Notes under the pieces: model-generated
Told to the model about the DNA's origin: nothing
The model's database searches: none
What the model saw: the letters and a program-made list of their open reading frames with translations, nothing else
Shown: positions 3,982-22,128 of the stretch, one piece after another
Layout of the letters: each line of letters opens with the position of its first letter
Position numbering within the stretch: position 1 is the stretch's first letter
Source: Pseudomonadota bacterium
GTDB taxonomy: Bacteria; Pseudomonadota; Gammaproteobacteria; Halothiobacillales; Halothiobacillaceae
Reading direction: 5' to 3'
Assembly: GCA_021795795.1 (NCBI GenBank)
Contig: JAJYPA010000021.1
Location: forward strand, 1 to 39,106
DNA: 39,106 nt
Translations under genes and position numbers: made by a program

Positions 3982-5199
3982 TTATATCGTCGGCTTCGAT
4001 CTTGGCTTCTCCGCCAGAAGATCCTCCAATGCGTTGGTCAGGCGCACTACATGTGTCTGGGTATGCGCCGCACTGATCGTGACACGTAGCCGGGACGCGC
4101 CCTGGGGCACGGTCGGTGGGCGAATCGCCGGCACCCATAATCCGGCATCCGCCAACTGGGTCGACCAGGCAACGGCCTGAGTGCTGTCGCCGACCAGTAC
4201 CGGCTGGATGGGCGTTTCCGATGGCATCAACTCGATGCCCGGTGGCAGCCCCCGCTTGAACTCCGCCACGCGCGTGCGCCAATTCGCTCGCAAGTCAGTT
4301 GCAGATTGCACGATGGCAAGGCTCGCCAGTGTCGCCACGGCCAGGGCAGGCGGCTGCGCGGTGGTGAACAGGTAACTGCGCGCGCGTTGCAACAGCACTT
4401 CGACAGGCTGCGACGCACCGGCCACAAACGCCCCCGCCGTGCCAAACGCCTTGCCGAGCGTACCGACCTGAACGAGGTATTCGGGCACGCCCGCGTCGAT
4501 CAACCCGAGCTCGGACAAAGAACCTCGCCCCGCCTCACCCCAGACGGCAAAGCCATGAGCATCATCAACCACGAGCCATGCATCAAATTCTTCCGCCAGT
4601 GCCATCAAGTCGGCCAACGGTGCCACGTCGCCATCCATGCTGAATACGCCATCGGTCAGAAGCATTCGCGTACCGGTCGCCCGCATCAAAAGGCGTCGGG
4701 CATCGGCCATGTCGCCGTGGCGGTAGCGCCGCAAGGTCGCGCCGGAAAGCTGGGCGGCGTCGACCAGCGAGGCGTGATTTAATTTGTCGGCGACCACGGT
4801 GTCGCCACGCCCAACCAGACCGCCCACCACGGCCAGATTCGCCATATAACCTGTGGAAAACAGCAAGCTACGGTCGACGCGCAACCACTCGGCCAACGCG
4901 GATTCCAGTGCATCGTGCGGCTCGAAATGTCCGTTGACCAGATGCGCCGCCCCCGAGCCCACACCCCAACGTGCCGCCCCCATCTGCAAGGCGGCCACGA
5001 TGTCGGGGTGATTGGCCAGACCAAGATAGTCGTTGCTGCAAAAAGTCAGGAGTTCGCGCCCGTCCACCCGCATCCTGACGCCCTGTGGCGACTGCCCGAC
5101 CCGCAATCGCCGCTCCAGCCCTTCGGCGCGGCGCGTATCAAGCCAATGTGTCCAATCGCGTGTTGTGATAATTTCAATCCCCAAAACTAAATATGGCAA
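3982..5199 (-). CDS. bioF: 8-amino-7-oxononanoate synthase (biotin synthesis)
   Basis: This is a PLP-dependent enzyme of the alpha-oxoamine synthase family. It condenses pimeloyl-ACP/CoA with alanine to make 8-amino-7-oxononanoate (KAPA) in biotin biosynthesis. The 405-residue frame shows TFCSNDYLGLANHP near the N-terminus, LVVDDAHGFAVWG (Asp and His near PLP) and the Schiff-base lysine in QVGTLGKAFGTAGAF. Its length is slightly above the roughly 385 residues usual for the family. No ATG is available near the expected N-terminus: the choices are TTG at 5199 or TTG at 5184, neither with a clear ribosome-binding site. The 5' end abuts or overlaps the divergent histidine kinase gene. bioB is about 30 kb away, so the biotin genes are not clustered here. 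Confidence 0.92.
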   Translation of the reverse strand: MPYLVLGIEIITTRDWTHWLDTRRAEGLERRLRVGQSPQGVRMRVDGRELLTFCSNDYLGLANHPDIVAALQMGAARWGVGSGAAHLVNGHFEPHDALESALAEWLRVDRSLLFSTGYMANLAVVGGLVGRGDTVVADKLNHASLVDAAQLSGATLRRYRHGDMADARRLLMRATGTRMLLTDGVFSMDGDVAPLADLMALAEEFDAWLVVDDAHGFAVWGEAGRGSLSELGLIDAGVPEYLVQVGTLGKAFGTAGAFVAGASQPVEVLLQRARSYLFTTAQPPALAVATLASLAIVQSATDLRANWRTRVAEFKRGLPPGIELMPSETPIQPVLVGDSTQAVAWSTQLADAGLWVPAIRPPTVPQGASRLRVTISAAHTQTHVVRLTNALEDLLAEKPRSKPTI

Positions 5200-5213
5200 C
5201 CCATCGGTTCATC

Positions 5214-7175
5214 ATGCGCCTTCCCGTGAACATTTTCCTCTGGACCTTCGGCGCCACGCTGCTGCCGGTGCTGGCGTTGGTTTGGGGCGTCACCGCGTTC
5301 AGCGAACATCGGTTCCAGTCAGAAGTCAACCGTGAGATCGGCGACAATATCCAGTCGCTCACGGGGGAAATCAACAACCGGCTGCGTTATGAGCGCGAGG
5401 TTTTGCGCGGTATTGCCCACTCCCAACCCATTCAAACCATGCTCAATGTCCTGGTTGCCTCCGCCGAGGGCATACGCCACTCCGATCTGACTTCAGACCG
5501 GATTCGCGCCAACTCGTTTCTGGCCGGGTTGCAACGCACCGTACCTGGTCTCGGCAGCATCCGCATTCTCGATGCGGCGGGCAATACCGTCGTCAAGACC
5601 ACGCTGGGTCGGGCCGCGCCGCCCATGTTCCAGAGCCTGAGCCAGGTCAACTACGTCGAAGAGGAACTCGACAACCCCGCGTTCCTCAATCAGCTCCAAT
5701 CACTGCCCATGGAAGATGTAAGTTTCATCATGCTGCCGCCCTCGCTCTGGGATGTTGCTCCCGGGCAATTTCCGAGCATGTTGTACGGCGTTTATCCCTT
5801 GAGGAACTTCGGTGATCATCACGCAGGTTATGTGGTGTTAAACACCTATGGTGAATATCTCGATCAGATATTGTCGCTTTCCCCCAAGCCGCGCAACAGT
5901 CATGTCATGGTGATCGAACACGACCCCGGCAATCCGCAACGCGATGGCCTGGTTCTGTACAACGACCAGACCGGCCGGTTGTTCGTGACACCGGAAGAAT
6001 CAAATCCGAACACCAATCCTCAATACGCGCAGACGATCGACCACGGTCTGTTCTGGCAAACGGCCGTGGCGCTCTCTAATGGCGTATATCTGGCGCAAGA
6101 CGGGAAAACCCGCACCTACTTCCAGGAATACCACCCGTATCCGTACAGCCTGGTGTCGTGGTTCATTATGCTGAAGACGCCAGCGGACGTCACATCCGCT
6201 CCCTTTCAGGATATCCATCACAGCCTTTGGGGCTTCACGCTGCTCGCACTGGGCATCAGCCTGTTGCTGGCTGGTTTGGGCGCCCGTTATTTCTCTCGCC
6301 CGATAGCTCGACTCGGGCTCAGTCTCAAGCATTTTGCCGATGGCAACCCGCACGAAATCATCCCGGTTGATTCGCGCACCACGGAAGTTCGCCAACTCCA
6401 GCAGTCATTCCGCTACCTGACCGAACATCTCACCGAAGAAGCCCACAAACGGCAAGCTGCTGAACGGCAAATGCTGCAACAGGCCAAACTCGCCTCCATC
6501 GGTGAAATGGCGGCTGGCATCGGGCATGAGATCAACAATCCGCTCAACAATATACTCACACTGACCCGCCTGCTGGAGCGCCAGTTACCGTCCGAAAAAA
6601 CTGAATTACACGCCGACCTTGAAGATCTGCGCGCCGAGGCCTTGCGGGTGGGTCATATCGTGCGGGGCGTGATGAACTTCGCCCGCCAGCTTCCGCCCGA
6701 TCACCAACCCACGCCGATCACCCAGTGGCTGCTCGATCTGATTGATCGACTGCAACCCGAAGCCATGGAAGCCGATGTCTTCCTCAACCTGTCGCTGGAT
6801 GAACAGGATTGTGTGGCGAGCTTCGATCCGAACCAGATCGGACAGGTCGTGCTCAATCTGGTGCGCAATGCCATACATGCCTCGCCACCGATGGGTGAAA
6901 TCACCATCACCGCCCACTGCAAACCCGATTCCTTAGAGATTGAAGTACTCGACAATGGCAAAGGCATCGAACCAGAAGCCCTGGATAAAGTGTTCGACCC
7001 CTTCTTCACCACCAAATCCGTGGACAAGGGCACGGGTCTTGGATTATCCATTAGTCTTGGCATCGTGCAATATCATGGCGGTACACTTAAGATCGAGAAC
7101 CGCCAAGACCGCAGCGGCGTGCGCGCCTTCTTGTGCCTGCCACGTGAAAAATCCGGGCCACGTGTTGGCCACTAG
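5214..7175 (+). CDS. Membrane sensor histidine kinase, partner of the adjacent sigma54-type regulator
   Basis: The 653-residue kinase has a first membrane segment at about residues 5-25, a large periplasmic region of about 300 residues (probably Cache-like), a second membrane segment at about 336-358, a HAMP linker (about 360-410), HisKA with phospho-acceptor His438 in GEMAAGIGHEINNPLNNIL, and a HATPase with N-box NLVRNAIHASP, G1 DNGKGIEP and G2 GTGLGLSI. The H-box follows the NtrB/DctB style that pairs with sigma54 activators. ATG at 5193 would add seven residues and overlap bioF; ATG at 5214 begins right before the hydrophobic segment and is preferred, although neither has a good ribosome-binding site. 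The response regulator follows after 55 bp. By position near soxYZ it may sense a sulfur compound (inference), resembling the TspS/TspR system that I recall being reported for sox control in Acidithiobacillus caldus. Confidence 0.9.
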   Translation: MRLPVNIFLWTFGATLLPVLALVWGVTAFSEHRFQSEVNREIGDNIQSLTGEINNRLRYEREVLRGIAHSQPIQTMLNVLVASAEGIRHSDLTSDRIRANSFLAGLQRTVPGLGSIRILDAAGNTVVKTTLGRAAPPMFQSLSQVNYVEEELDNPAFLNQLQSLPMEDVSFIMLPPSLWDVAPGQFPSMLYGVYPLRNFGDHHAGYVVLNTYGEYLDQILSLSPKPRNSHVMVIEHDPGNPQRDGLVLYNDQTGRLFVTPEESNPNTNPQYAQTIDHGLFWQTAVALSNGVYLAQDGKTRTYFQEYHPYPYSLVSWFIMLKTPADVTSAPFQDIHHSLWGFTLLALGISLLLAGLGARYFSRPIARLGLSLKHFADGNPHEIIPVDSRTTEVRQLQQSFRYLTEHLTEEAHKRQAAERQMLQQAKLASIGEMAAGIGHEINNPLNNILTLTRLLERQLPSEKTELHADLEDLRAEALRVGHIVRGVMNFARQLPPDHQPTPITQWLLDLIDRLQPEAMEADVFLNLSLDEQDCVASFDPNQIGQVVLNLVRNAIHASPPMGEITITAHCKPDSLEIEVLDNGKGIEPEALDKVFDPFFTTKSVDKGTGLGLSISLGIVQYHGGTLKIENRQDRSGVRAFLCLPREKSGPRVGH

Positions 7176-7230
7176 TGTTCAGGCCATCGAAGACCTGCGA
7201 ACAGATACCCAATTCATTTCAGACAAAACC

Positions 7231-8610
7231 ATGACCAAATTACCGCTGATTGCCTTTATTGATGACGACCCTCGCGCCAGCGAGCTGTTCAGCCGCTATG
7301 CCCAGACCGAAGGCCTGCAGGTGCAAGGATTCCAGTCGGTTGAGGCAGCCCAGCCCTGGCTGGAAAACAACCCGGCCGATCTGATCATTTCGGATCTCAA
7401 GATGCCGGGCATGAGCGGCTTGGAGTTCCTCTCCTGGCTGCGGCAGCGTGATACCGAAGTACCATTTGTCCTGATCACCGGTTACTCGACGCTCGACAAT
7501 GCCATTGATGCGCTGCGACTGGGTGCCAACGATTTCATCAAAAAGCCCTACGACCCCGAAGATCTGGTGCAGCTCACCCACCGGTTATTGAGAAGGGACC
7601 CCGACCCAGATACGCACGACTTCTCCGAAGCAGAACGCGCCATGTTGGGCAGCTCACCCGCGATTGCCGGTGTCTATCGCGTCATCGACAAAATCCACGA
7701 CGTGCGCATCAATGTGATGATCGAAGGGGAATCCGGCAGTGGCAAGGAACTCGCCGCGCGTGCCATTCATGATCGCTCCGATTTTGCTGACAAACCCTAT
7801 ATCGTCATCGATTGCGGTGCACTGACCGACACCCTGCTCGAAAACGAACTGTTCGGTCACGAAAAAGGCGCTTATACCGGCGCTTCCAGCACCAAACCCG
7901 GTCTGCTTGAAGTTGCCAGCGGCGGGACGGTATTTCTGGATGAAATCGGCAATATCTCAGATGCCATGCAGGTCAAACTGCTGCGCGTGATTCAGGAACA
8001 GCAAATCACGCGCGTCGGTGGAGTCACACCCATCAAGATCGACGTCCGTTTCATTGTCGCCAGCAACCGCGACCTCGCACAGATGGTTGCCCAAGGCAGT
8101 TTCCGCCACGATTTGTATCACCGCCTGCACGTCGTCCGCCTGCGCATCCCGCCACTGCGCGAACGCAAGGAAGACATCCCGATCCTCGTCAATCACTTTA
8201 TCCGCCACTTCGCGGCCCGCTATAACCGTCCTGCCGAACGCTTCAATGCCAGATGCATGGCGCGCATTCTCGAGTACACATGGCCGGGCAACATCCGCGA
8301 GCTGAAAAATATGATCGAGCGCGCCGTCGCGCTATCGAGCGAGGCCGAAATCCGGTTGGATCAGGAAGCTGAGGCAACGCCACCTTGGGCATCGGCCCTG
8401 ATTCGCCCCCAATCATCCGGCGGTGCGGAGGCCATCGATACCGATCATCCGACACTGGATGTACTTGAGCGGCGTTATATCGAAAAACTGCTCAAGGAAT
8501 ACGACGGCAATCGTGAAAAAACCGCACAGACGCTGGGCATCAACAAGTCCACCCTCTGGCGGAAACTGCAGAGTTACGAGCAATCGGCCCCAGACGATTT
8601 TCCTGTGTGA
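7231..8610 (+). CDS. Sigma54-dependent NtrC-family response regulator
   Basis: The 459-residue protein has three domains. The receiver (1-120) has acidic residues Asp11-13, phospho-acceptor Asp55 in IISDLKMPG and a conserved Lys in [11 protein letters not shown]. The AAA+ sigma54 activation domain (about 140-380) has Walker A GESGSGKE, the sigma54-contact loop as GAYTGA, Walker [10 protein letters not shown] and the arginine-finger region [14 protein letters not shown]. The C-terminal Fis-type helix-turn-helix reads [21 protein letters not shown]. Phe-to-Tyr in the GAFTGA loop is a known functional variant. The ATG at 7231 starts exactly at the receiver, so the longer in-frame opening that overlaps the kinase is rejected. 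It should activate RpoN promoters, and the soxY promoter at 9936 is the obvious nearby candidate target. Confidence 0.93.
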
Positions 8611-8646: not shown

Positions 8647-9705
8647 CTACTCTAAACGGGCAGCCAGCACGACTTCGTGGATAAAACAGAGCTTGCGAAT
8701 TACCGCTTCAGGATTCACGAAGGGATAGCTGTCCTTCTGGCCGAGGCTGCGATTCATGCTGTTGAGAAACAGGGTAAACGGCATCCAATCGCGCATCAGA
8801 GCAGCCTCGAACGCCTCGATGGTCATCGGCGCTGATGCCTCTGGAAACGGTGAACTCGGCTGAGCACTGCCAATCCGGGCTCGCCAGTTGGCCGCGGTAT
8901 CAAGCGCATCGACGATATGCAGATAATGCGCCCAGGTTTCGGCCCAATCCTCCCAGGGATGCATGGTGGCGTACTCACTGATATAGTTGTTTTGCCAGCC
9001 CGAACGTGCACCGTTTTTATAGTAGGCATCCATCGCTTCGGAATAATCTGCGCACTCATCACCAAACCATTGGCGATAACCACTAATCCAACGGCTGTTT
9101 TCCACCAAAAGCATCCAATAATAATGACCGATTTCGTGCCGCAAGTGACCTAATAGGGTTCGGTACGGCTCATCCAAGCGTTTGCGTTTGCGCTCTCGTA
9201 CCACGTCATCCGCCTCATCGATATTCAATGTGATCACCCCATCCTGATGCCCGGTCAGCACCCGCTCCTGAGGGTAATCCGCCAGAAAGTTGAAACTCAG
9301 CCCGCGCGCGGGATCCCTATCTCGATCAGGTATCGGTAATCCGATCTGCATCAATGAATAAATCAATCGCCGCTTGGCCGCTTCCAGCAAGAACCAGAGA
9401 TGCAGATGTTCAGGTATGGACAGCGCGGGAATCATCTCGGTGAAACGACAACTACGGCACCAGGCATTTTGATCCGATTCGGCCACCATCCAGTTGCAGA
9501 TGTGCTGGGATACATAGTTGTTGCAGGGGCGATAACGTTCGACCAGAGCGCTGTTGACCGGTGACCAGAACAGATCGGAACCGGGCTGGAATGCAACCAT
9601 GGCGCGTATCTCGGTGACATAACCGAGCGGCATGCCACAGTGTTCACACACCACATTTTCAAAAAAAGTGATCTGACCGCAGTTGCCACATTCAAACGTC
9701 TTCAT
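8647..9705 (-). CDS. Zinc-ribbon metallopeptidase-like protein (COG4307/DUF2248 type)
   Basis: The 352-residue protein starts with a zinc ribbon (CGNCG and CEHCG at residues 6-22) and a further Cys pair CRSC near 85. It contains the zinc-peptidase signature HEIGHYYW (about residues 190-197), followed by downstream acidic and Asp residues such as DECADY. I recognise the layout as the putative zinc-binding metallopeptidase family of unknown substrate. No signal peptide is present, so it is probably cytoplasmic. ATG at 9705 is preceded by AAGGAG at 8 bases. It sits convergent with the response regulator (36-bp gap) and divergent from soxYZ. Whether it has any role in sulfur metabolism is unknown. 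Confidence 0.85.
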   Translation of the reverse strand: MKTFECGNCGQITFFENVVCEHCGMPLGYVTEIRAMVAFQPGSDLFWSPVNSALVERYRPCNNYVSQHICNWMVAESDQNAWCRSCRFTEMIPALSIPEHLHLWFLLEAAKRRLIYSLMQIGLPIPDRDRDPARGLSFNFLADYPQERVLTGHQDGVITLNIDEADDVVRERKRKRLDEPYRTLLGHLRHEIGHYYWMLLVENSRWISGYRQWFGDECADYSEAMDAYYKNGARSGWQNNYISEYATMHPWEDWAETWAHYLHIVDALDTAANWRARIGSAQPSSPFPEASAPMTIEAFEAALMRDWMPFTLFLNSMNRSLGQKDSYPFVNPEAVIRKLCFIHEVVLAARLE

Positions 9706-9784
9706 GTCCCGACTCCTTGATTTACGCCCTTTGGTGCCTGCTGCCGTCTTCGTGTTTGGACATCATGACGCATCTATCGCTGCA

Positions 9785-9798
9785 TGACCAGTCGGTCA
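9785..9798. promoter_or_regulatory. Dyad upstream of soxY, possible activator site
   Basis: TGACC-AGTC-GGTCA is a perfect 5-bp inverted repeat centred about 170 bp before the predicted soxY transcription start. Sigma54 activators normally bind upstream dyads in this distance range. Assignment is inference from position and symmetry only. Confidence 0.3.
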
Positions 9799-9865
9799 AA
9801 GCCCTCACCGGATTGGGAATTCACTCAGCCGCATCGACCACCTCTCAACGCAAAATGAAAACAAC

Positions 9866-9884
9866 AAATTGCACTTTGCAATTT
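9866..9884. promoter_or_regulatory. Dyad upstream of soxY, possible activator site
   Basis: AAATTGC-ACTTT-GCAATTT is a perfect 7-bp inverted repeat centred about 88 bp before the predicted soxY start. Position and symmetry fit an upstream activating sequence for the NtrC-family regulator at 7231. It overlaps a second, weaker TTGCAA repeat. Confidence 0.4.
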
Positions 9885-9935
9885 GCAATCCAGAAAAACA
9901 CCAAGCAAATACATTAAATATCAATAATTTAATAA

Positions 9936-9952
9936 TTGGCACGTCACATGCT
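9936..9952 (+). promoter_or_regulatory. Sigma54 (-24/-12) promoter of soxYZ
   Basis: TTGGCACGTCACATGCT matches the RpoN consensus TTGGCACG-N4-TTGCT except for one base. The invariant GG (9938-9939) and GC (9950-9951) are exactly 12 bases apart. The predicted start is near 9963, giving a leader of about 37 bases before the soxY ATG. The surrounding 100 bases are A/T-rich. Confidence 0.75.
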
Positions 9953-9999
9953 TTAACTATTAGCGTGGTATTCCACACAACAATGAGGAGCTCAGATCC

Positions 10000-10473
10000 A
10001 TGAAATCTAATCGTCGTGTATTTTTGAAAGGCAGCATGGCTGCCAGTGCAGTTGGCCTGGCTGTTGGCGCCGGCCTGTTGACCCCGCGCGCTGTTTTGGC
10101 CGCTACTTGGCCAGAGAAAGCGTACAACACTAAAGGCTTTGACGAGTCTCTGAGCGACCTGTTCGGCAGCGCTGGCGCTCCAACAGAGTCTAAAGACGTT
10201 ACCGTTAAGGCTCCAGACATCGCTGAAAACGGCGCTGTTGTTCCTGTCACCATCGAATCTGCTGTTGCTGGTACCGACAACATCGCGATCCTGGTTAAAG
10301 GCAACCCGACTCCGCTGGTCGCCAACTTCAAGTTCGTTGGTGCTCAACCTTTCGCGTCAACCCGTATCCGTATGGGCAAAACCGACAACGTGATCGGTGT
10401 AGCTCACGCTGGCGGCAAGCTGTACATGGCTGAGAAGCAAGTTAAGGTTACCATCGGTGGTTGCGGCGGTTAA
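10000..10473 (+). CDS. soxY: Sulfur carrier protein SoxY of the thiosulfate-oxidising Sox system
   Basis: SoxY carries sulfur intermediates covalently on a C-terminal cysteine while SoxXA, SoxB and related enzymes act on them in the periplasm. The 157-residue precursor has a twin-arginine signal (NRRVFLKG near residues 4-11, cleavage expected after AVLA) and ends with the diagnostic GGCGG, carrying Cys155. ATG at 10000 has GAGGAG upstream. soxZ, its obligate partner, follows after 57 bp. Codon use is rich in GCT and GTT, unlike the GCC/GCG-rich neighbours, which fits very high expression. No soxXAB or soxCD lies in the window, so the Sox genes are dispersed in this genome. Confidence 0.97.
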   Translation: MKSNRRVFLKGSMAASAVGLAVGAGLLTPRAVLAATWPEKAYNTKGFDESLSDLFGSAGAPTESKDVTVKAPDIAENGAVVPVTIESAVAGTDNIAILVKGNPTPLVANFKFVGAQPFASTRIRMGKTDNVIGVAHAGGKLYMAEKQVKVTIGGCGG

Positions 10474-10530
10474 TTCGCTCTGCTCTCTGATTGACTTTAC
10501 CTAAATGACGAATTAACGAGGTTACAAACC

Positions 10531-10836
10531 ATGTCAACTATCAAAATGCGTATTAGTACCGCCGGCGACGTTCTTGACGTTAAAAGCCTGATCCAGCAGG
10601 CGATGGAATCCGGCCGTGTGAAAGACAAGGCCACCGGCAAACTGATTCCGGCCGACTTCATCCAGACTATGACCGTTTCTGTCAATGACAAAACAGCCGT
10701 AGAAGCGAACTTGTCCGTAGCGGTTTCCAAGAACCCCTACATCAACTTCAAAGTTCCAGGCAAAAAAGGCGACAAAGTAACGATCGCATACACTACCAAC
10801 CTGGGCAAAAGCGACACAGCAACCGAAACTGCTTAA
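10531..10836 (+). CDS. soxZ: Sulfur carrier partner SoxZ
   Basis: The 101-residue protein lacks a signal peptide and matches SoxZ in length and composition (MSTIKMRI start, GRVKDKATGKLIPADFI, YINFKVPGKKGDKV). SoxZ folds with SoxY into the SoxYZ heterodimer and is thought to be co-exported through the SoxY Tat signal. It lies 57 bp after soxY, with the weak ribosome-binding site GAGG upstream, and is followed within 55 bp by a strong terminator. The pair therefore forms a two-gene operon. Its highly biased codon use resembles that of soxY. Confidence 0.96.
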   Translation: MSTIKMRISTAGDVLDVKSLIQQAMESGRVKDKATGKLIPADFIQTMTVSVNDKTAVEANLSVAVSKNPYINFKVPGKKGDKVTIAYTTNLGKSDTATETA

Positions 10837-10887
10837 TTAGTAGCTCTTGTGGCGGTTGACGTTCACGTACCGTCTCCGCAAGCGTGC

Positions 10888-10912
10888 AAACCCGCCGAAT
10901 GGCGGGTTTTTT
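10888..10912 (+). terminator. Rho-independent terminator of soxYZ
   Basis: CCCGCC-GAAT-GGCGGG is flanked by AAA and followed by six T. It lies 51 bp after the soxZ stop and between the convergent soxZ and proline iminopeptidase genes. On the minus strand only three T follow the stem, so it should act mainly on soxYZ. Confidence 0.9.
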
Positions 10913-10954
10913 AATGTCGAAAAATCAAACGGCAGCGGTCAGCAAGTCCGTCGT

Positions 10955-17659: not shown

Positions 17660-19045
17660 TCAACTGCGTTCATTCGCGCTGATACCCAAGGATTTCAGCT
17701 TGCGATACAAATTGGTCCGTTCCATGCCGGTCAGCCGGGCAAGTTCGGTCATTGATCCGTCGCAACTCTTGAGCTGCGCCAGCAGATAACGTCGCTCGAA
17801 CTCATCCCGCGCATCACGCAGGGGTAAATCGAGATTCAGGGAGATCAAGGTCGAGTTGGCCGCATCGTCTGATGCGTCGATCGATGGCAGAACGCCCAAT
17901 GCCCGCTGCACTTCCTGTTCATCGATGGCATCGCCCGTACCAAGGATCAGCATGCGTTGCACCAGATTCTTCAACTCGCGCACATTGCCAGGCCAGGCAT
18001 GGGCTTTGAGCAGGTTGCGGGCCCCGATGGTCAACTCGCGCCGGGGTAAACCTTCGATGCGATGCGCCGCTTCAAGATAGTGGGTGAGCAGCACGGGAAC
18101 GTCCTGTGGGTGGTGACGCAAGGGTTCGATGGGCAGGGGAACCACGGAAAGGTGATAGAACAGATCCTCACGGAACCGCCCTTGCCGCACTTCCGTTTCC
18201 AGATCCTTTCGGGTGGCGGCAATCACGCGCACATCCACCCGCACCGGTTCTGCGCCACCCACCCGGAAGAACGTTTGATTCTCCAGGGCGGAAATCAATT
18301 GCATCTGAGTCTGCTCATCCATATCCGCGGCTTCGGCGATGAACAACGTGCCGCCATTGGCCTGCTCAAGCAGACCGTACCGGATCTTGCCGTCGCTTTC
18401 CGCACCGAAAAGCTCGATGGCCGCATTCTGACGCCCCCCCATCGCGACGCCACCGGTATCGATGAATGGAAAATGCCGACGTGGGGAGTGCTGATGGATA
18501 AAGCGCGCCAGCGCCTGCTTGCCGGTGCCCGGCTCGCCTGAAATGAGCACCCAGGCATCGTGCCCTGCGACCTTTTTCGCTTGTGAGCGCAGGGTGGACA
18601 TGTACTCGCTGTCCCCGATCAACTCGAACGGATCGGGAACACTGCGCTTGAGTTGCTCGTTTTCGCGGATCAGGCGATTGTTTTCAAGACCGTGCTCAAT
18701 GATCAACAGAAGTTTATCGAGCGAGATCGGTTTTTCGATGAAATCGAAGGCACCCAGGCGCGTAGCCTCAACGGCGGTTTCCACCGTACCATGACCGGAC
18801 ATCATGACCACCGGCCACACCAGTTGATCCAGCTCGGCCCATTCACGCAGCAGGGAAATACCGTCCTGCCCCGGCATCCAGATATCCAGAAGAATCAAAT
18901 CCGGACGACGCGCAGCAATCAAAGTGCGTGCTTCGTTCGCATCGGCAGCACTGGATACCGTATACCCTTCATCCGCCAACAACTCCGCCAGCAAATTGCG
19001 GATTTCCACTTCATCGTCAACGACCAGAATGTGTCCAATACTCAT
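17660..19045 (-). CDS. ntrX: NtrX-type response regulator with degenerate AAA+ motifs
   Basis: The 461-residue regulator has a receiver with Asp10-Asp11 and phospho-acceptor Asp54 in LILLDIWMPG, an AAA+ domain (about residues 140-370) and a Fis-type helix-turn-helix ending in MTELARLTGMERTNLYRKL. Walker A is ISGEPGTGKQ. The sigma54-contact GAFTGA loop is absent (ELFGAESDGKIRYG in its place), which is usual for NtrX. Walker B reads GTLFIAEAADM, with Ala where Asp is expected. It probably does not remodel RpoN-holoenzyme and may act as a direct DNA-binding repressor or activator (inference). It sits 12 bp after ntrY. Confidence 0.92.
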   Translation of the reverse strand: MSIGHILVVDDEVEIRNLLAELLADEGYTVSSAADANEARTLIAARRPDLILLDIWMPGQDGISLLREWAELDQLVWPVVMMSGHGTVETAVEATRLGAFDFIEKPISLDKLLLIIEHGLENNRLIRENEQLKRSVPDPFELIGDSEYMSTLRSQAKKVAGHDAWVLISGEPGTGKQALARFIHQHSPRRHFPFIDTGGVAMGGRQNAAIELFGAESDGKIRYGLLEQANGGTLFIAEAADMDEQTQMQLISALENQTFFRVGGAEPVRVDVRVIAATRKDLETEVRQGRFREDLFYHLSVVPLPIEPLRHHPQDVPVLLTHYLEAAHRIEGLPRRELTIGARNLLKAHAWPGNVRELKNLVQRMLILGTGDAIDEQEVQRALGVLPSIDASDDAANSTLISLNLDLPLRDARDEFERRYLLAQLKSCDGSMTELARLTGMERTNLYRKLKSLGISANERS

Positions 19046-19057
19046 GGTGTGCCATCG

Positions 19058-21508
19058 TTATCCTGAATTATCTAAATCGGAATCCGCACGGGTATCGTGT
19101 ACCCGGCGAAACAAGTCCCCAGGGGCATTATGCCTGCTTGCCGTATCGAAGGGAGACGTTTCTGGACGATCTCCCCGCAGGGCCGACAAACCAGAAAACA
19201 CAGATACCGCCGACTCAGCCTGCTCTTCTTCCGGCCTATCTGAAGAGGCAAAGGGTAACCGAATAACAATGCGCGCGCCTGTTTTCGTGCTTGCCGCACC
19301 CCACGCCGGGTTATCACTGTGCAGTTCGACTGCCCCATCCTGCACATTGGAGGCCAGCACCACACCGCTATGCTCTTCCACGATTTTCTTCACGATTGCC
19401 AACCCCAACCCTGACCCCTTGGGACGGGTCGTGGCATAAGGCTCAAACAGGCGATCAATCATATCTTCCGGGAATCCCGGGCCATTATCGGTCACAGTCA
19501 ACTCAACCAAAACCAAGCCGCCTTCCTGATGCAACCCGGTCGACAGCGTCACCTCGGGCTGTTCGCCTCCGGGGCAGCCCTGCTCGCTCATTGCCTGCTG
19601 CGCATTGCGAATCAGGTTGTGCAGCACCTGCCGAATCCGCCCCGCATCGGCTCGCACCGGCAGAGCATGCCCGGTGGATCGATGCAGCACGGGGATGTCG
19701 CCGCCTTTGTACAAATCAATGACTTCCGAGACCAACTCATCCAAATCCAGAATTTTCAAGGCGACTTGCGGCGAGCGGGCGTACTCGGCAAATTCATTTA
19801 CCATGAATTTCATTGCCTCGACCTGACTGATGATGGTTTGGGTCGAGCGATCCAGAATCTGCGCGGGCTCATCGCTGAGGTTGCCCAGCAACCGACGACG
19901 CAAGCGCTCCGCCGATAACTGAATGGGCGTAAGCGGGTTCTTGATTTCATGCGCCAACCGACGCGCCACTTCGGACCAAGCCGCGTCGCGCTGGGCCTGA
20001 ATCAGGGTGGTGACATCCTCGAAAACCAGAACGAAACCACCGGTCACATCATCGGCAGGCAGTGCAGCAACCCGACTCAACAAAATGCGTCGCCCGGCAT
20101 CGCCCATGATCCGAACCTGGGCTTCAACGGTGGCGCCGGCCGGCAATTGCCCAGGCTCAAGCAGATGACTGAAAGCGGCACAGATCGGCTCCAGATGGGG
20201 GTATGTCTGACAAATCTCGGTCAGAGTGCAGCCATCGATGCGCTGGCTGGCGATACTCAACAATTGCGTGACGACAGAATTGCTTCGTGTGATGTGGCCA
20301 TCGGGCGACAAAGTCAGCACACCCGATGAAAGATGTTGAATCACTGTCTCCAGATAATCGCGTTCCTGATCCGCCACTTCCTGCAGCTGCTGCATGACCT
20401 GATGTGCCCGGCGCACCCGAGCCGTCATCGTGTTGAACGACTGCACAAGCTGCCCTAGGTCGTCCCGACGATCCACAGGCAAACGCAGACTGTAATCGCC
20501 CTCGGCGACCGCTCGTGTCCCGGCAGCCAGTTCGCGAATCGGCGCCAACAGCTTACGCGCCGCGATAAAGGCCAGCCATACCGCCGTCAGCAAGGACAAC
20601 AGCAATGCCAGGGTAAGCGCAAAGGTAAAGGTTCTTTTCAGCGATTTGTGTAGAAAAATCAAGGAACGGTATTCGTTAAAAGCAGCCTGCACGCTACTGG
20701 ACAGCTGGTTCGCACGCGGCGAAATGGAATACAGCGCCTGCAGGACTTCACTACTGCCATCACCGGTCAGGCCCGCCGTGAGCGGGACGACGACCCGGAT
20801 GCGCATGGAATCTCCACCACCGGGATCAAGTCCGATAAAGTCCTTACCTGCGCGGGCATGGCTCAGTGCCGTTTCGTCCGGGCGGGAAGGCACGATGGCC
20901 TGCAAATCATCCGAAGCGGAAGCCACGATGAGATTCCGCGAACCGAAAATCGTCATCTCATGGGCGCCGGTATTGCGGCGCACCGCATTCAAATCCAGGG
21001 CAACAAGGTCACCCGATACGCCCTGTAGCTGTTTGGCCGCCCGCAGGGTTTCATTCATGGCGGTACGCATCTGCCCGTCAAATGCCAATTGCGACAACGA
21101 GAGCGCATCCGACATCGCCTGTTCGACCTGCACATCGAACCAGGAATCGATACCGCGTTGAATGAACGATACGGAGAAATAAAACACGATGAGCACAGGG
21201 ATCGAAGTCAGGCCGACAAACGTGAGCACCAGCCGCGCGGTCAGGCGGGCGCCGGGCGCCCCGCGCCGATAATGGGTGACCAGCCGGATGATATGCCCGA
21301 GTACGACCGCAGCCAGAAACAGAATCCCCAGTGCAGACAGCCCCAACAGGGAAAGATAGAGATGCTCCGGCTGGTTGGCCCGCTGAAGCGATTCTGAAAT
21401 CAGATACATCAGAATCAACAGCAGCACGACGACCATCATGCTGATCGGTGGTACCAGTCGACGAATCCAGCGGTAGTAGAACTGTCCCCAGTGGCCGATG
21501 AACTTCAT
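19058..21508 (-). CDS. ntrY: Sensor histidine kinase NtrY
   Basis: The 816-residue membrane kinase has three hydrophobic segments in the first 110 residues, a periplasmic region, a further membrane segment near 300-320, HAMP, PAS (about 390-500) and HisKA with His in VARRLAHEIKNPLTPIQLSAERL. The ATPase shows NLIRNAQQAMS, DNGPGFPEDM and GSGLGLAI. It is the partner of NtrX. The family is linked to nitrogen, redox or envelope control in different bacteria; its signal here is unknown. The ATG shares one base with the stop of the DUF4390 gene. About 65 low-complexity acidic residues extend past the ATPase domain. Confidence 0.94.
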   Translation of the reverse strand: MKFIGHWGQFYYRWIRRLVPPISMMVVVLLLILMYLISESLQRANQPEHLYLSLLGLSALGILFLAAVVLGHIIRLVTHYRRGAPGARLTARLVLTFVGLTSIPVLIVFYFSVSFIQRGIDSWFDVQVEQAMSDALSLSQLAFDGQMRTAMNETLRAAKQLQGVSGDLVALDLNAVRRNTGAHEMTIFGSRNLIVASASDDLQAIVPSRPDETALSHARAGKDFIGLDPGGGDSMRIRVVVPLTAGLTGDGSSEVLQALYSISPRANQLSSSVQAAFNEYRSLIFLHKSLKRTFTFALTLALLLSLLTAVWLAFIAARKLLAPIRELAAGTRAVAEGDYSLRLPVDRRDDLGQLVQSFNTMTARVRRAHQVMQQLQEVADQERDYLETVIQHLSSGVLTLSPDGHITRSNSVVTQLLSIASQRIDGCTLTEICQTYPHLEPICAAFSHLLEPGQLPAGATVEAQVRIMGDAGRRILLSRVAALPADDVTGGFVLVFEDVTTLIQAQRDAAWSEVARRLAHEIKNPLTPIQLSAERLRRRLLGNLSDEPAQILDRSTQTIISQVEAMKFMVNEFAEYARSPQVALKILDLDELVSEVIDLYKGGDIPVLHRSTGHALPVRADAGRIRQVLHNLIRNAQQAMSEQGCPGGEQPEVTLSTGLHQEGGLVLVELTVTDNGPGFPEDMIDRLFEPYATTRPKGSGLGLAIVKKIVEEHSGVVLASNVQDGAVELHSDNPAWGAASTKTGARIVIRLPFASSDRPEEEQAESAVSVFSGLSALRGDRPETSPFDTASRHNAPGDLFRRVHDTRADSDLDNSG

Positions 21509-22128
21509 CAATCGCCCCCTTCACTGGCTGTCGGTACTGCCCAGGCAAACCAGTCACTATTGAGCGACCAACGGGGATCAAACAGGGCAGGAAACCTCAG
21601 TGGTAATGGCAGTTTGTTGACATCTAGCACCATGCGCACCCGCCCGACCAGAGCACCATGTCCTTCAAGATGGCGAGCAGTCGTCACCGGCCACGCCCGA
21701 ATCCGTTCAAGAGAGTGCAACGCTCCATCCAAGGTGCTGAAACTGCGTGCCTCGTGTTCTAGGGTATCGGTCACAAGCCAGGTTTTCGACAGTGCGTGGA
21801 ATTCAAGACGATAGCGCCGTTGATCCGAGGCGACCTCATTTGGAAACCACCAGTCGCGCGGCGACTCGATGACGGAGATCATCGACAGGTTGATCGGGAT
21901 GGCATTGCGCATGGCATCGATCATCTCCTTGTCGAGCAAGAGTTTGAGGTCGATATCGAGATAGACGACGCCCTCACGAATCTCTGCGTGAGCCCGCTGA
22001 ATAGTGGCGCTGGATGCACTGGCCTGGGCCCCGGGCAGCACGCACAGAAGGAGCAGAAAAAACGACAGCGCCGACACTGCAGCGCGGCAGCGATCGACCG
22101 CCTGATCAGTTTTTTTCCAGCACAGCAT
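21508..22128 (-). CDS. DUF4390 protein with signal peptide
   Basis: The 206-residue protein has an N-terminal hydrophobic segment (about residues 16-33) ending in GAQASASS, suggesting export to the periplasm. The body matches the DUF4390 family commonly encoded between rsmB and ntrY; its function is unknown. The gene overlaps the rsmB 3' end by 23 bases and its stop shares a base with the ntrY start, so it is tightly coupled. ATG at 22140 is an equally possible start; longer openings would lie inside rsmB. By context it may modulate the NtrY sensor (inference). Confidence 0.8.
   Translation of the reverse strand: MLCWKKTDQAVDRCRAAVSALSFFLLLLCVLPGAQASASSATIQRAHAEIREGVVYLDIDLKLLLDKEMIDAMRNAIPINLSMISVIESPRDWWFPNEVASDQRRYRLEFHALSKTWLVTDTLEHEARSFSTLDGALHSLERIRAWPVTTARHLEGHGALVGRVRMVLDVNKLPLPLRFPALFDPRWSLNSDWFAWAVPTASEGGD

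What the first reader, a model, noticed from the sequence alone, without database searches (positions are those of the whole stretch)
9936..9952. soxYZ appears to be driven by a sigma54 (RpoN) promoter
TTGGCACGTCACATGCT carries the invariant GG and GC exactly 12 bases apart and differs from the -24/-12 consensus at one position. It sits 48 bases before the soxY ATG in an A/T-rich region. RpoN control of a Sox carrier operon would make thiosulfate oxidation strictly activator-dependent. I recall a sigma54-dependent system (TspS/TspR) described for sox genes in Acidithiobacillus caldus; this would be an independent Halothiobacillus-type case with the promoter on an isolated soxYZ operon.
Basis: partly seen in the sequence, partly recalled or inferred. 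Interest (0 to 1): 0.75.

Follow-up and report, generated by a model that had tools for sequence, protein, structure and literature searches.

The report
Dedicated sigma54 switch for soxYZ
In these sulfur-oxidizing bacteria the genes for the protein pair that carries sulfur during thiosulfate oxidation appear to have their own on-switch: a sigma54 promoter, a palindromic landing site, and a sensor-plus-activator gene pair encoded nearby, distinct from the one sigma54 switch already described for such genes.

Summary
The motif is real. TTGGCACGTCACATGCT (9936-9952) is the best -24/-12 match in the window; alone it is only moderately unlikely by chance. Conservation decides: 16 of 16 aligned Halothiobacillaceae-type soxY leaders keep TGGCA, 15 of 16 also GC. 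Upstream lies a 22-bp palindrome (9868-9889). Its exact form occurs once per genome in 20 of the 21 genomes of the two groups holding Halothiobacillus and Guyparkeria, 109-110 coordinates before soxY in all 19 where soxY was found. The window also encodes a sensor kinase (5193-7175) and a sigma54 activator (7231-8610); related pairs adjoin soxYZ in relatives and other Gammaproteobacteria. The activator is not an ortholog of Acidithiobacillus caldus TspR: different clade (AU p 0.0005), recognition helix, DNA site and sensor fold. soxB lacks this promoter in 6 of 6 genomes. Best reading: a dedicated two-component system with a double-Cache sensor switches on soxYZ through RpoN. Sigma-54 regulator and kinase genes at a soxYZ locus were already noted in lucinid symbionts (PMC11237559); cis architecture, near-unique site and independence from TspSR are the new part. 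Nothing here is experimental; the signal is unknown.

The parts
5193..7175 (+). Sensor histidine kinase, 660 aa: periplasmic double-Cache sensor (about residues 33-345, between membrane helices), HAMP, HisKA, HATPase
7231..8610 (+). Sigma54-dependent response regulator (bEBP), 459 aa: receiver, AAA+ with GAYTGA loop, Fis-type HTH with [13 protein letters not shown]; candidate activator of soxYZ
   Evidence: Pfam Response_reg, Sigma54_activat, HTH_8 (on the longer TTG ORF 6940-8610); relatives next to soxYZ; trees
8647..9705 (-). Peptidase_Mx putative zinc protease, divergent from soxYZ; lies between activator and soxYZ in the window and in some Halothiobacillus relatives only
   Evidence: Pfam PF15887, 344 bits; between the two in L014/G001, L015, L102 (G379) and L104, about 32-aa remnant in L019, not found in L016-L018, L105-L108, L136 or the Guyparkeria-type loci
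9868..9889 (+). Candidate upstream activator sequence ATTGCACTTTGCAATTTGCAAT (two overlapping TTGCA-N3-TGCAA dyads), centre about -85
9919..9931 (+). IHF-like block TATCAATAATTTA; tentative
   Evidence: fits WATCARNNNNTTR (consensus recalled) 9 of 9; 8 or 9 of 9 at the same place in 13 of 16 leaders; best of a scan, so weak
9936..9952 (+). -24/-12 sigma54 promoter element TTGGCACGTCACATGCT
9963..9963 (+). Predicted transcription start (12 bases after the C of GC)
   Evidence: inference from -12 at 9951
9965..9976 (+). Conserved inverted repeat GTGG-TATT-CCAC at the predicted 5' end of the mRNA (short hairpin, or a DNA site)
   Evidence: column identity 0.81 over 9963-9976; 4-bp stem, no compensatory changes
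9985..9990 (+). Ribosome-binding site GAGGAG
   Evidence: sequence
10000..10473 (+). soxY
   Evidence: TIGR04488
10531..10836 (+). soxZ
   Evidence: TIGR04490
10888..10909 (+). Intrinsic terminator-like stem-loop after soxZ
   Evidence: 9 pairs, T run; 3 such sites in the region against 1.8 in shuffles

Best explanation
soxYZ is transcribed by RNA polymerase with sigma54 from the -24/-12 element at 9936-9952, starting near 9963. Transcription needs an activator: the response regulator at 7231-8610, phosphorylated by the neighbouring kinase (5193-7175) when its periplasmic double-Cache domain senses a ligand, probably a reduced sulfur compound such as thiosulfate or tetrathionate. The phosphorylated activator binds the palindrome at 9868-9889 and drives open-complex formation through its AAA+ domain, possibly helped by DNA bending. 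In the Halothiobacillus and Guyparkeria groups soxYZ is the only evident target, so the Sox carrier is controlled separately from soxB. Shown by computation: element, palindrome, gene pair, conservation, linkage. Inferred: binding, phosphotransfer, start site, signal.
For: Element conserved in 16 of 16 leaders for TGGCA and 15 of 16 for GC; column identity 0.83 in the element and 0.85 in the palindrome against 0.51-0.58 in three neighbouring stretches. Palindrome with 0 mismatches exactly once in each of 20 of 27 family genomes (10 of 10 of group g1, 10 of 11 of g2), at a coordinate difference of 109-110 from soxY in 19 of 19 where soxY was found. Sigma54 site in 16 of 17 soxY loci with the activator adjacent against 3 of 62 where none was detected (Fisher 7e-13); dyad 15 of 17 against 2 of 62. 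Class-wide: kinase next to activator in 30 of 30 loci examined (of 39 matches), soxY downstream in 15 of 30 by tblastn; sigma54 site plus dyad within 350 bases after the activator in 12 of 29 loci against 0.2% of shuffles. Unlinked case: Thiohalophilus soxYZ (L093) has element and dyad, and its genome holds activator relatives elsewhere. rpoN in 25 of 27 family genomes. No sigma70-like promoter found at 9700-10950 (0.9 expected in shuffles).
Against: No expression, footprint or start-site data. The window's own genome is not held, so its rpoN is inferred; rpoN was not found in G372 (64% complete) or G388 (96% complete). 15 of the 17 linked loci are of Halothiobacillaceae type and not independent; some of the 62 others have short upstream contigs, so the pair could be missed there. 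L020 reads TGTA where TGC is expected, and L020, L021 and L063 have degenerate palindromes. Half of the class-wide loci show no soxY within 1.5 kb, some because the contig ends, and 17 of 29 lack the site-plus-dyad combination. L059 has element and dyad, but its genome gave only a kinase plus a partial activator-like match. Peptidase_Mx separates activator and target in the window.
Confidence: 0.87

Rival explanations
1. The sigma54 promoter is real, but another enhancer-binding protein of the cell (for example the relative of L005, whose HTH also holds STLWRKL, or NtrC) activates it, alone or as well.
For: G001 holds 8 strong bEBP matches, one of them the window's ortholog; the L005 paralog has recognition helix DPSTLWRKL.
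Against: The window activator family is the one linked to soxYZ and to the dyad across genera.
Confidence: 0.07
2. The motif is a chance match and soxYZ is read from a sigma70-type promoter.
For: About 0.2 such sites per 39 kb are expected by chance.
Against: Conservation, fixed spacing to the palindrome and linkage to an activator; no sigma70-like site found at 9700-10950.
Confidence: 0.03
3. This is simply the Halothiobacillus copy of the known TspS/TspR system.
For: Same logic: kinase plus sigma54 response regulator beside sox genes with a sigma54 promoter. TspR-type proteins score slightly higher (301-311 bits) than the best G001 paralog (286 bits) against the window activator.
Against: TspR-type proteins (L097, L098) are only 36-41% identical to it, within the 32-48% of G001's other bEBPs; they fall outside the family clade (100/99, 99/99), and a tree joining them with the window and Halothiobacillaceae activators is rejected (p-AU 0.0005); HTH LGISRKQLRTKM against [12 protein letters not shown]; the site TGTCCCAAATGGGACA has 0 matches in the window at 3 mismatches and 0 in the 4 family genomes of the sample; both genomes with the TspR site also hold a member of the window's family (L175, L176).
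Confidence: 0.03

Closest known systems
TspS/TspR of Acidithiobacillus caldus and other chemolithotrophs (Li et al. 2017, not held and not read, abstract recalled; described in PMC6335251 and PMC12194929, passages read)
   Same: Sigma54-dependent two-component system encoded beside sox genes, with a palindromic upstream site and a -24/-12 promoter
   Different: Non-orthologous activator, different recognition helix and site (TGTCCCAAATGGGACA), single-Cache sensor, precedes a soxX-led cluster; here double-Cache sensor, TTGCA-N3-TGCAA site, soxYZ alone
Sigma-54 regulator and histidine kinase genes at the soxYZ locus of Thiohalomonadales lucinid symbionts (PMC11237559, passages read)
   Same: Same kind of gene neighbourhood reported; possibly members of the same family (not tested here)
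   Different: No promoter, upstream site, target count or comparison with TspSR in the passages read
Sigma54 two-component system of the thiocyanate dehydrogenase cluster in Thioalkalivibrio (PMC5744179, passages read)
   Same: Sigma54 control of a sulfur-oxidation gene cluster proposed from transcriptomics
   Different: Different target; its kinase is described as carrying a GAF domain

Membership tests
Sigma54 (-24/-12) promoter | GG and GC 12 bases apart in a good consensus match | tested here: met
   12 of 13 consensus positions (consensus recalled)
Sigma54 (-24/-12) promoter | Element conserved upstream of the same gene in relatives | tested here: met
   16 of 16 leaders for TGGCA, 15 of 16 for GC
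Sigma54 (-24/-12) promoter | rpoN in the organism | tested here: inconclusive
   Own genome not held; present in G001 and in 25 of 27 family genomes
Sigma54 (-24/-12) promoter | Enhancer-like site and sigma54 activator present | tested here: met
   Palindrome at 9868-9889 and bEBP at 7231-8610; their interaction is inferred
Sigma54 (-24/-12) promoter | Mapped start and RpoN dependence | not testable with these tools
   needs experiment
NtrC-type response regulator (bEBP) | Receiver, AAA+ sigma54 activation domain with GAFTGA-type loop, Fis-type HTH | tested here: met
   loop reads GAYTGA in the window and the Halothiobacillus-group proteins, GAFTGA in the other soxYZ-linked relatives listed
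TspS/TspR orthologs | Same clade as TspR to the exclusion of other NtrC-type paralogs | tested here: not met
   TspR outside the family clade; joint clade with Halothiobacillaceae activators rejected, p-AU 0.0005; long paralog branches leave TspR's own place unsure
TspS/TspR orthologs | Upstream site TGTCCCAAATGGGACA | tested here: not met
   0 in window at 3 mismatches; 0 in the 4 family genomes searched
TspS/TspR orthologs | Kinase with single Cache (sCache_3_2) sensor | tested here: not met
   TspS-type kinases of L097 and L098 match sCache_3_2 below its cut-off; the window kinase has no such match and models as double Cache

The most novel reading that the evidence does not exclude
A large family of Gammaproteobacterial sigma54 two-component systems, with double-Cache sensors where tested, evolved separately from TspSR as a dedicated, in places single-target switch for the Sox sulfur carrier SoxYZ, and in some lineages was redirected to other sulfur genes (a SoxA/TsdA-type cytochrome, DsrE-like proteins) while keeping a TTGCA-type DNA code.
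Probability: 0.55. Interest if true: 0.72.

Novelty: new variant of a known kind. Interest (0 to 1): 0.62.

Why it matters
How chemolithotrophs sense thiosulfate and switch on Sox is known for few organisms. A compact, conserved module (sensor, activator, one enhancer, one promoter, one operon) makes that question directly testable, and its separation from soxB suggests that the supply of the sulfur carrier is a control point of its own. It would be a second, non-orthologous sigma54 route to sox control, with its DNA site defined in advance.

Tried and rejected
Compensatory base pairing in the GTGG-N4-CCAC repeat: not found, so no claim of a conserved RNA structure. Further targets of the palindrome: extra sites with 1-2 mismatches in G364, G371, G379, G384 and G390 were read. 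Of the five away from soxY, four have a sigma54-like match of only 10 of 13 nearby and one has none; the G384 match overlaps the site itself; none is counted as a target. G378's 2-mismatch site overlaps its own soxY site, and G390's 2-mismatch site lies before soxY. soxB as a target: no element (10 of 13 or better) or dyad in 6 of 6 genomes. A first soxB script took antisense frames for two genomes and was replaced. Full-length kinase model: the 50 matches shown are dominated by the kinase core, so the sensor was modelled alone. L059: its genome gave no full-length family member; unresolved. Literature: among the papers listed by searches (20 of 207, 20 of 30, 15 of 48, 2 of 2, 3 of 3, 7 of 7, 4 of 4, 12 of 134) none was about sigma54 control of soxYZ in Halothiobacillus or Guyparkeria, judging by titles and starts of abstracts plus passages of seven papers; passages of PMC12016528 were not relevant.

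Selections: the tree used 54 rows: the window activator, 15 soxYZ-linked relatives (L016, L018 and L019 left out as partial, split or near-duplicate), 2 TspR, 8 paralogs (one of them the second bEBP of the window) and 28 of the 120 listed homologs (every third from P0041). The tree used 23 hand-picked rows. One search dropped L027 (29 bases read), leaving 79 of 80 loci. One search dropped L171 of 30 (contig ends inside the gene). The kinase alignment used the window protein and 66 of 120 listed relatives. The names Halothiobacillus and Guyparkeria for the unnamed groups g1 and g2 are inferred from contigs of equal length and position in named records (G001:C63 and L014; G371:C14 and L046).

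Full report
Observation. At 9936-9952 the window reads TTGGCACGTCACATGCT, with GG and GC 12 bases apart and one departure from the consensus YTGGCACG-N4-TTGCW (consensus recalled). It is the best match in the window (12 of 13 positions). By chance 0.21 such sites are expected per window, and 25 of 20000 simulated 294-bp intergenic regions reach that score. Looser matches are no more common than in shuffles (20 found, 26.7 expected at up to 3 mismatches). The motif alone is therefore suggestive, not decisive. The two downstream genes are true soxY and soxZ, followed by a terminator-like stem.

Conservation. In 16 Halothiobacillaceae-type leaders (the window plus 15 named loci) the core TGGCA is kept in 16 of 16 and GC in 15 of 16; L020 reads TGTA. 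Mean column identity is 0.83 in the element, against 0.51-0.58 in three neighbouring stretches: the flank before the palindrome, the gap after it, and the stretch after -12.

The enhancer. Centred about 60 bases upstream of the -24 G lies ATTGCACTTTGCAATTTGCAAT (9868-9889), a 22-bp palindrome made of two overlapping TTGCA-N3-TGCAA dyads. It fits RTTGCANNTTGCAANNTGCAAY at 18 of 18 positions in 13 of 16 leaders, its centre always 60-62 bases from the -24 G; in L020, L021 and L063 it is degenerate. Among 27 genomes of the family, a 0-mismatch copy occurs exactly once in 20: 10 of 10 of group g1 (Halothiobacillus) and 10 of 11 of g2 (Guyparkeria; the miss is 64% complete). It occurs in 0 of 6 genomes of the two other genera. 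The group names are inferred from contigs shared with named records. In all 19 of the 20 genomes where soxY was also found, the copy ends 109-110 coordinates before the soxY start; in the window the figure is 111. The pattern was drawn from such sequences, so its exactness is not independent evidence; its uniqueness and place are. Two loci outside the family (L149, L156) carry it exactly as well.

The activator and sensor are in the window. The ORF at 7231-8610 is a receiver-AAA+-Fis HTH sigma54 activator, and 5193-7175 is a HAMP-HisKA-HATPase kinase. A divergent Peptidase_Mx gene separates the pair from soxYZ in the window, L014/G001, L015, L102 (G379) and L104. It is a remnant in L019 and was not found there in L016-L018, L105-L108, L136 or the Guyparkeria-type loci, where the activator precedes soxYZ directly. 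Among 79 usable soxY loci, a sigma54 site (10 of 13 or better, within 110 bases) is found in 16 of 17 with the activator adjacent and in 3 of 62 where it was not detected; the dyad in 15 of 17 and 2 of 62. The kinase is seen in 16 of those 17; in L016 the contig ends before it. Fifteen of the 17 are Halothiobacillaceae-type, so this is not 17 independent cases. A class-wide draw is more independent: 32 of 185 genomes hold a close activator relative, with 39 matches, of which 30 came with a locus. Of these 30, 30 have the kinase next door and 15 have soxY downstream by tblastn, one of them weak (L164). Both a sigma54 site and a dyad follow the activator within 350 bases in 12 of 29, against 0.2% of shuffles; 14 have the site and 16 the dyad, against 6.1% and 1.5%. 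Other downstream genes include a SoxA/TsdA-type cytochrome (L172, with a 13-of-13 sigma54 site), DsrE-like proteins (L175 just under, L176 above the Pfam cut-off), and unrelated or unknown genes. Of the three soxY loci with a sigma54 site but no activator adjacent (L056, L059, L093), two also have the dyad: L093, whose genome holds activator relatives elsewhere, and L059, where the evidence is incomplete.

Independence from TspS/TspR. A. caldus TspR binds TGTCCCAAATGGGACA (PMC6335251, passages). A search for that site found 2 of 369 genomes, both with a TspR-type gene, the site, a sigma54-like element and a soxX-like cytochrome, soxY and soxZ in order (order read by eye). Their kinases match sCache_3_2 weakly, as reported for TspS (PMC12194929, passages). 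TspR is 36-41% identical to the window activator, within the 32-48% of G001's other bEBPs, though its bit scores (301-311) are slightly above the best of them (286). It lies outside the family clade (100/99; 99/99), and holding it together with the window and Halothiobacillaceae activators is rejected (p-AU 0.0005). Long paralog branches leave TspR's own place unsure. The recognition helices differ (KSTLWRKL against RKQLRTKM). Both TspR genomes carry a separate member of the window's family (L175, L176). The TspR site is absent from the window at 3 mismatches.

Scope. soxB does not share the element or dyad in 6 of 6 genomes and lies about 168 kb from soxYZ in the one-contig genome G379. So the module controls the carrier and, on this evidence, not soxB; soxXA and soxCD were not located. 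rpoN is present in 25 of 27 family genomes; the misses are G372 (64% complete) and G388 (96% complete). The window's own genome is not held.

Prior work. Passages of PMC11237559 note sigma-54 regulator and kinase genes at the soxYZ locus of Thiohalomonadales symbionts. Among the papers listed by the searches, none dealt with the promoter or with regulation of Halothiobacillus soxYZ, as far as listings and the passages read show. Hence: new variant of a known kind.

Noticed in passing
window 7231-8610: The sigma54-contact loop of the activator reads GAYTGA in the window and in the Halothiobacillus-group relatives where it was found, and GAFTGA in the other soxYZ-linked relatives listed; a lineage-specific change in a motif that touches sigma54.
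   Followed up: partly
window 8647-9705 (-): Peptidase_Mx gene shares the intergenic region with the sox promoter and comes and goes at this place among Halothiobacillus relatives; whether it answers to the same palindrome is untested.
   Followed up: partly
window 17660-21511 (-): A second sigma54 response regulator (best NCBIfam match NtrX, below its cut-off) and its kinase, next to trkA and a trkH-like gene.
   Followed up: partly
L018 4439-5817: In MAG LH_M7 the soxYZ-linked activator is split over two reading frames; sequencing error or real break, left as found.
   Followed up: no
L185 about 1508 and L186 about 1536: Two genomes of group g2 (G364, G371) have a second, 1-mismatch palindrome with the same weak sigma54-like sequence (10 of 13) 94 bases away; possible second target or conserved coding sequence.
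   Followed up: partly
L166, L168 downstream of the activator: Small proteins with a shared tail LWxLGSALLAMxGYKRMRN, without a Pfam match, follow the activator in two genomes; the tail looks like a sorting signal (inference).
   Followed up: no
L028, L029, L036-L038, L047, L061, L064, L066: Several other soxY loci have a different kinase and response regulator upstream (kinase core about 35% and receiver about 31% identical), perhaps the LuxR-type pair noted in PMC11237559.
   Followed up: no
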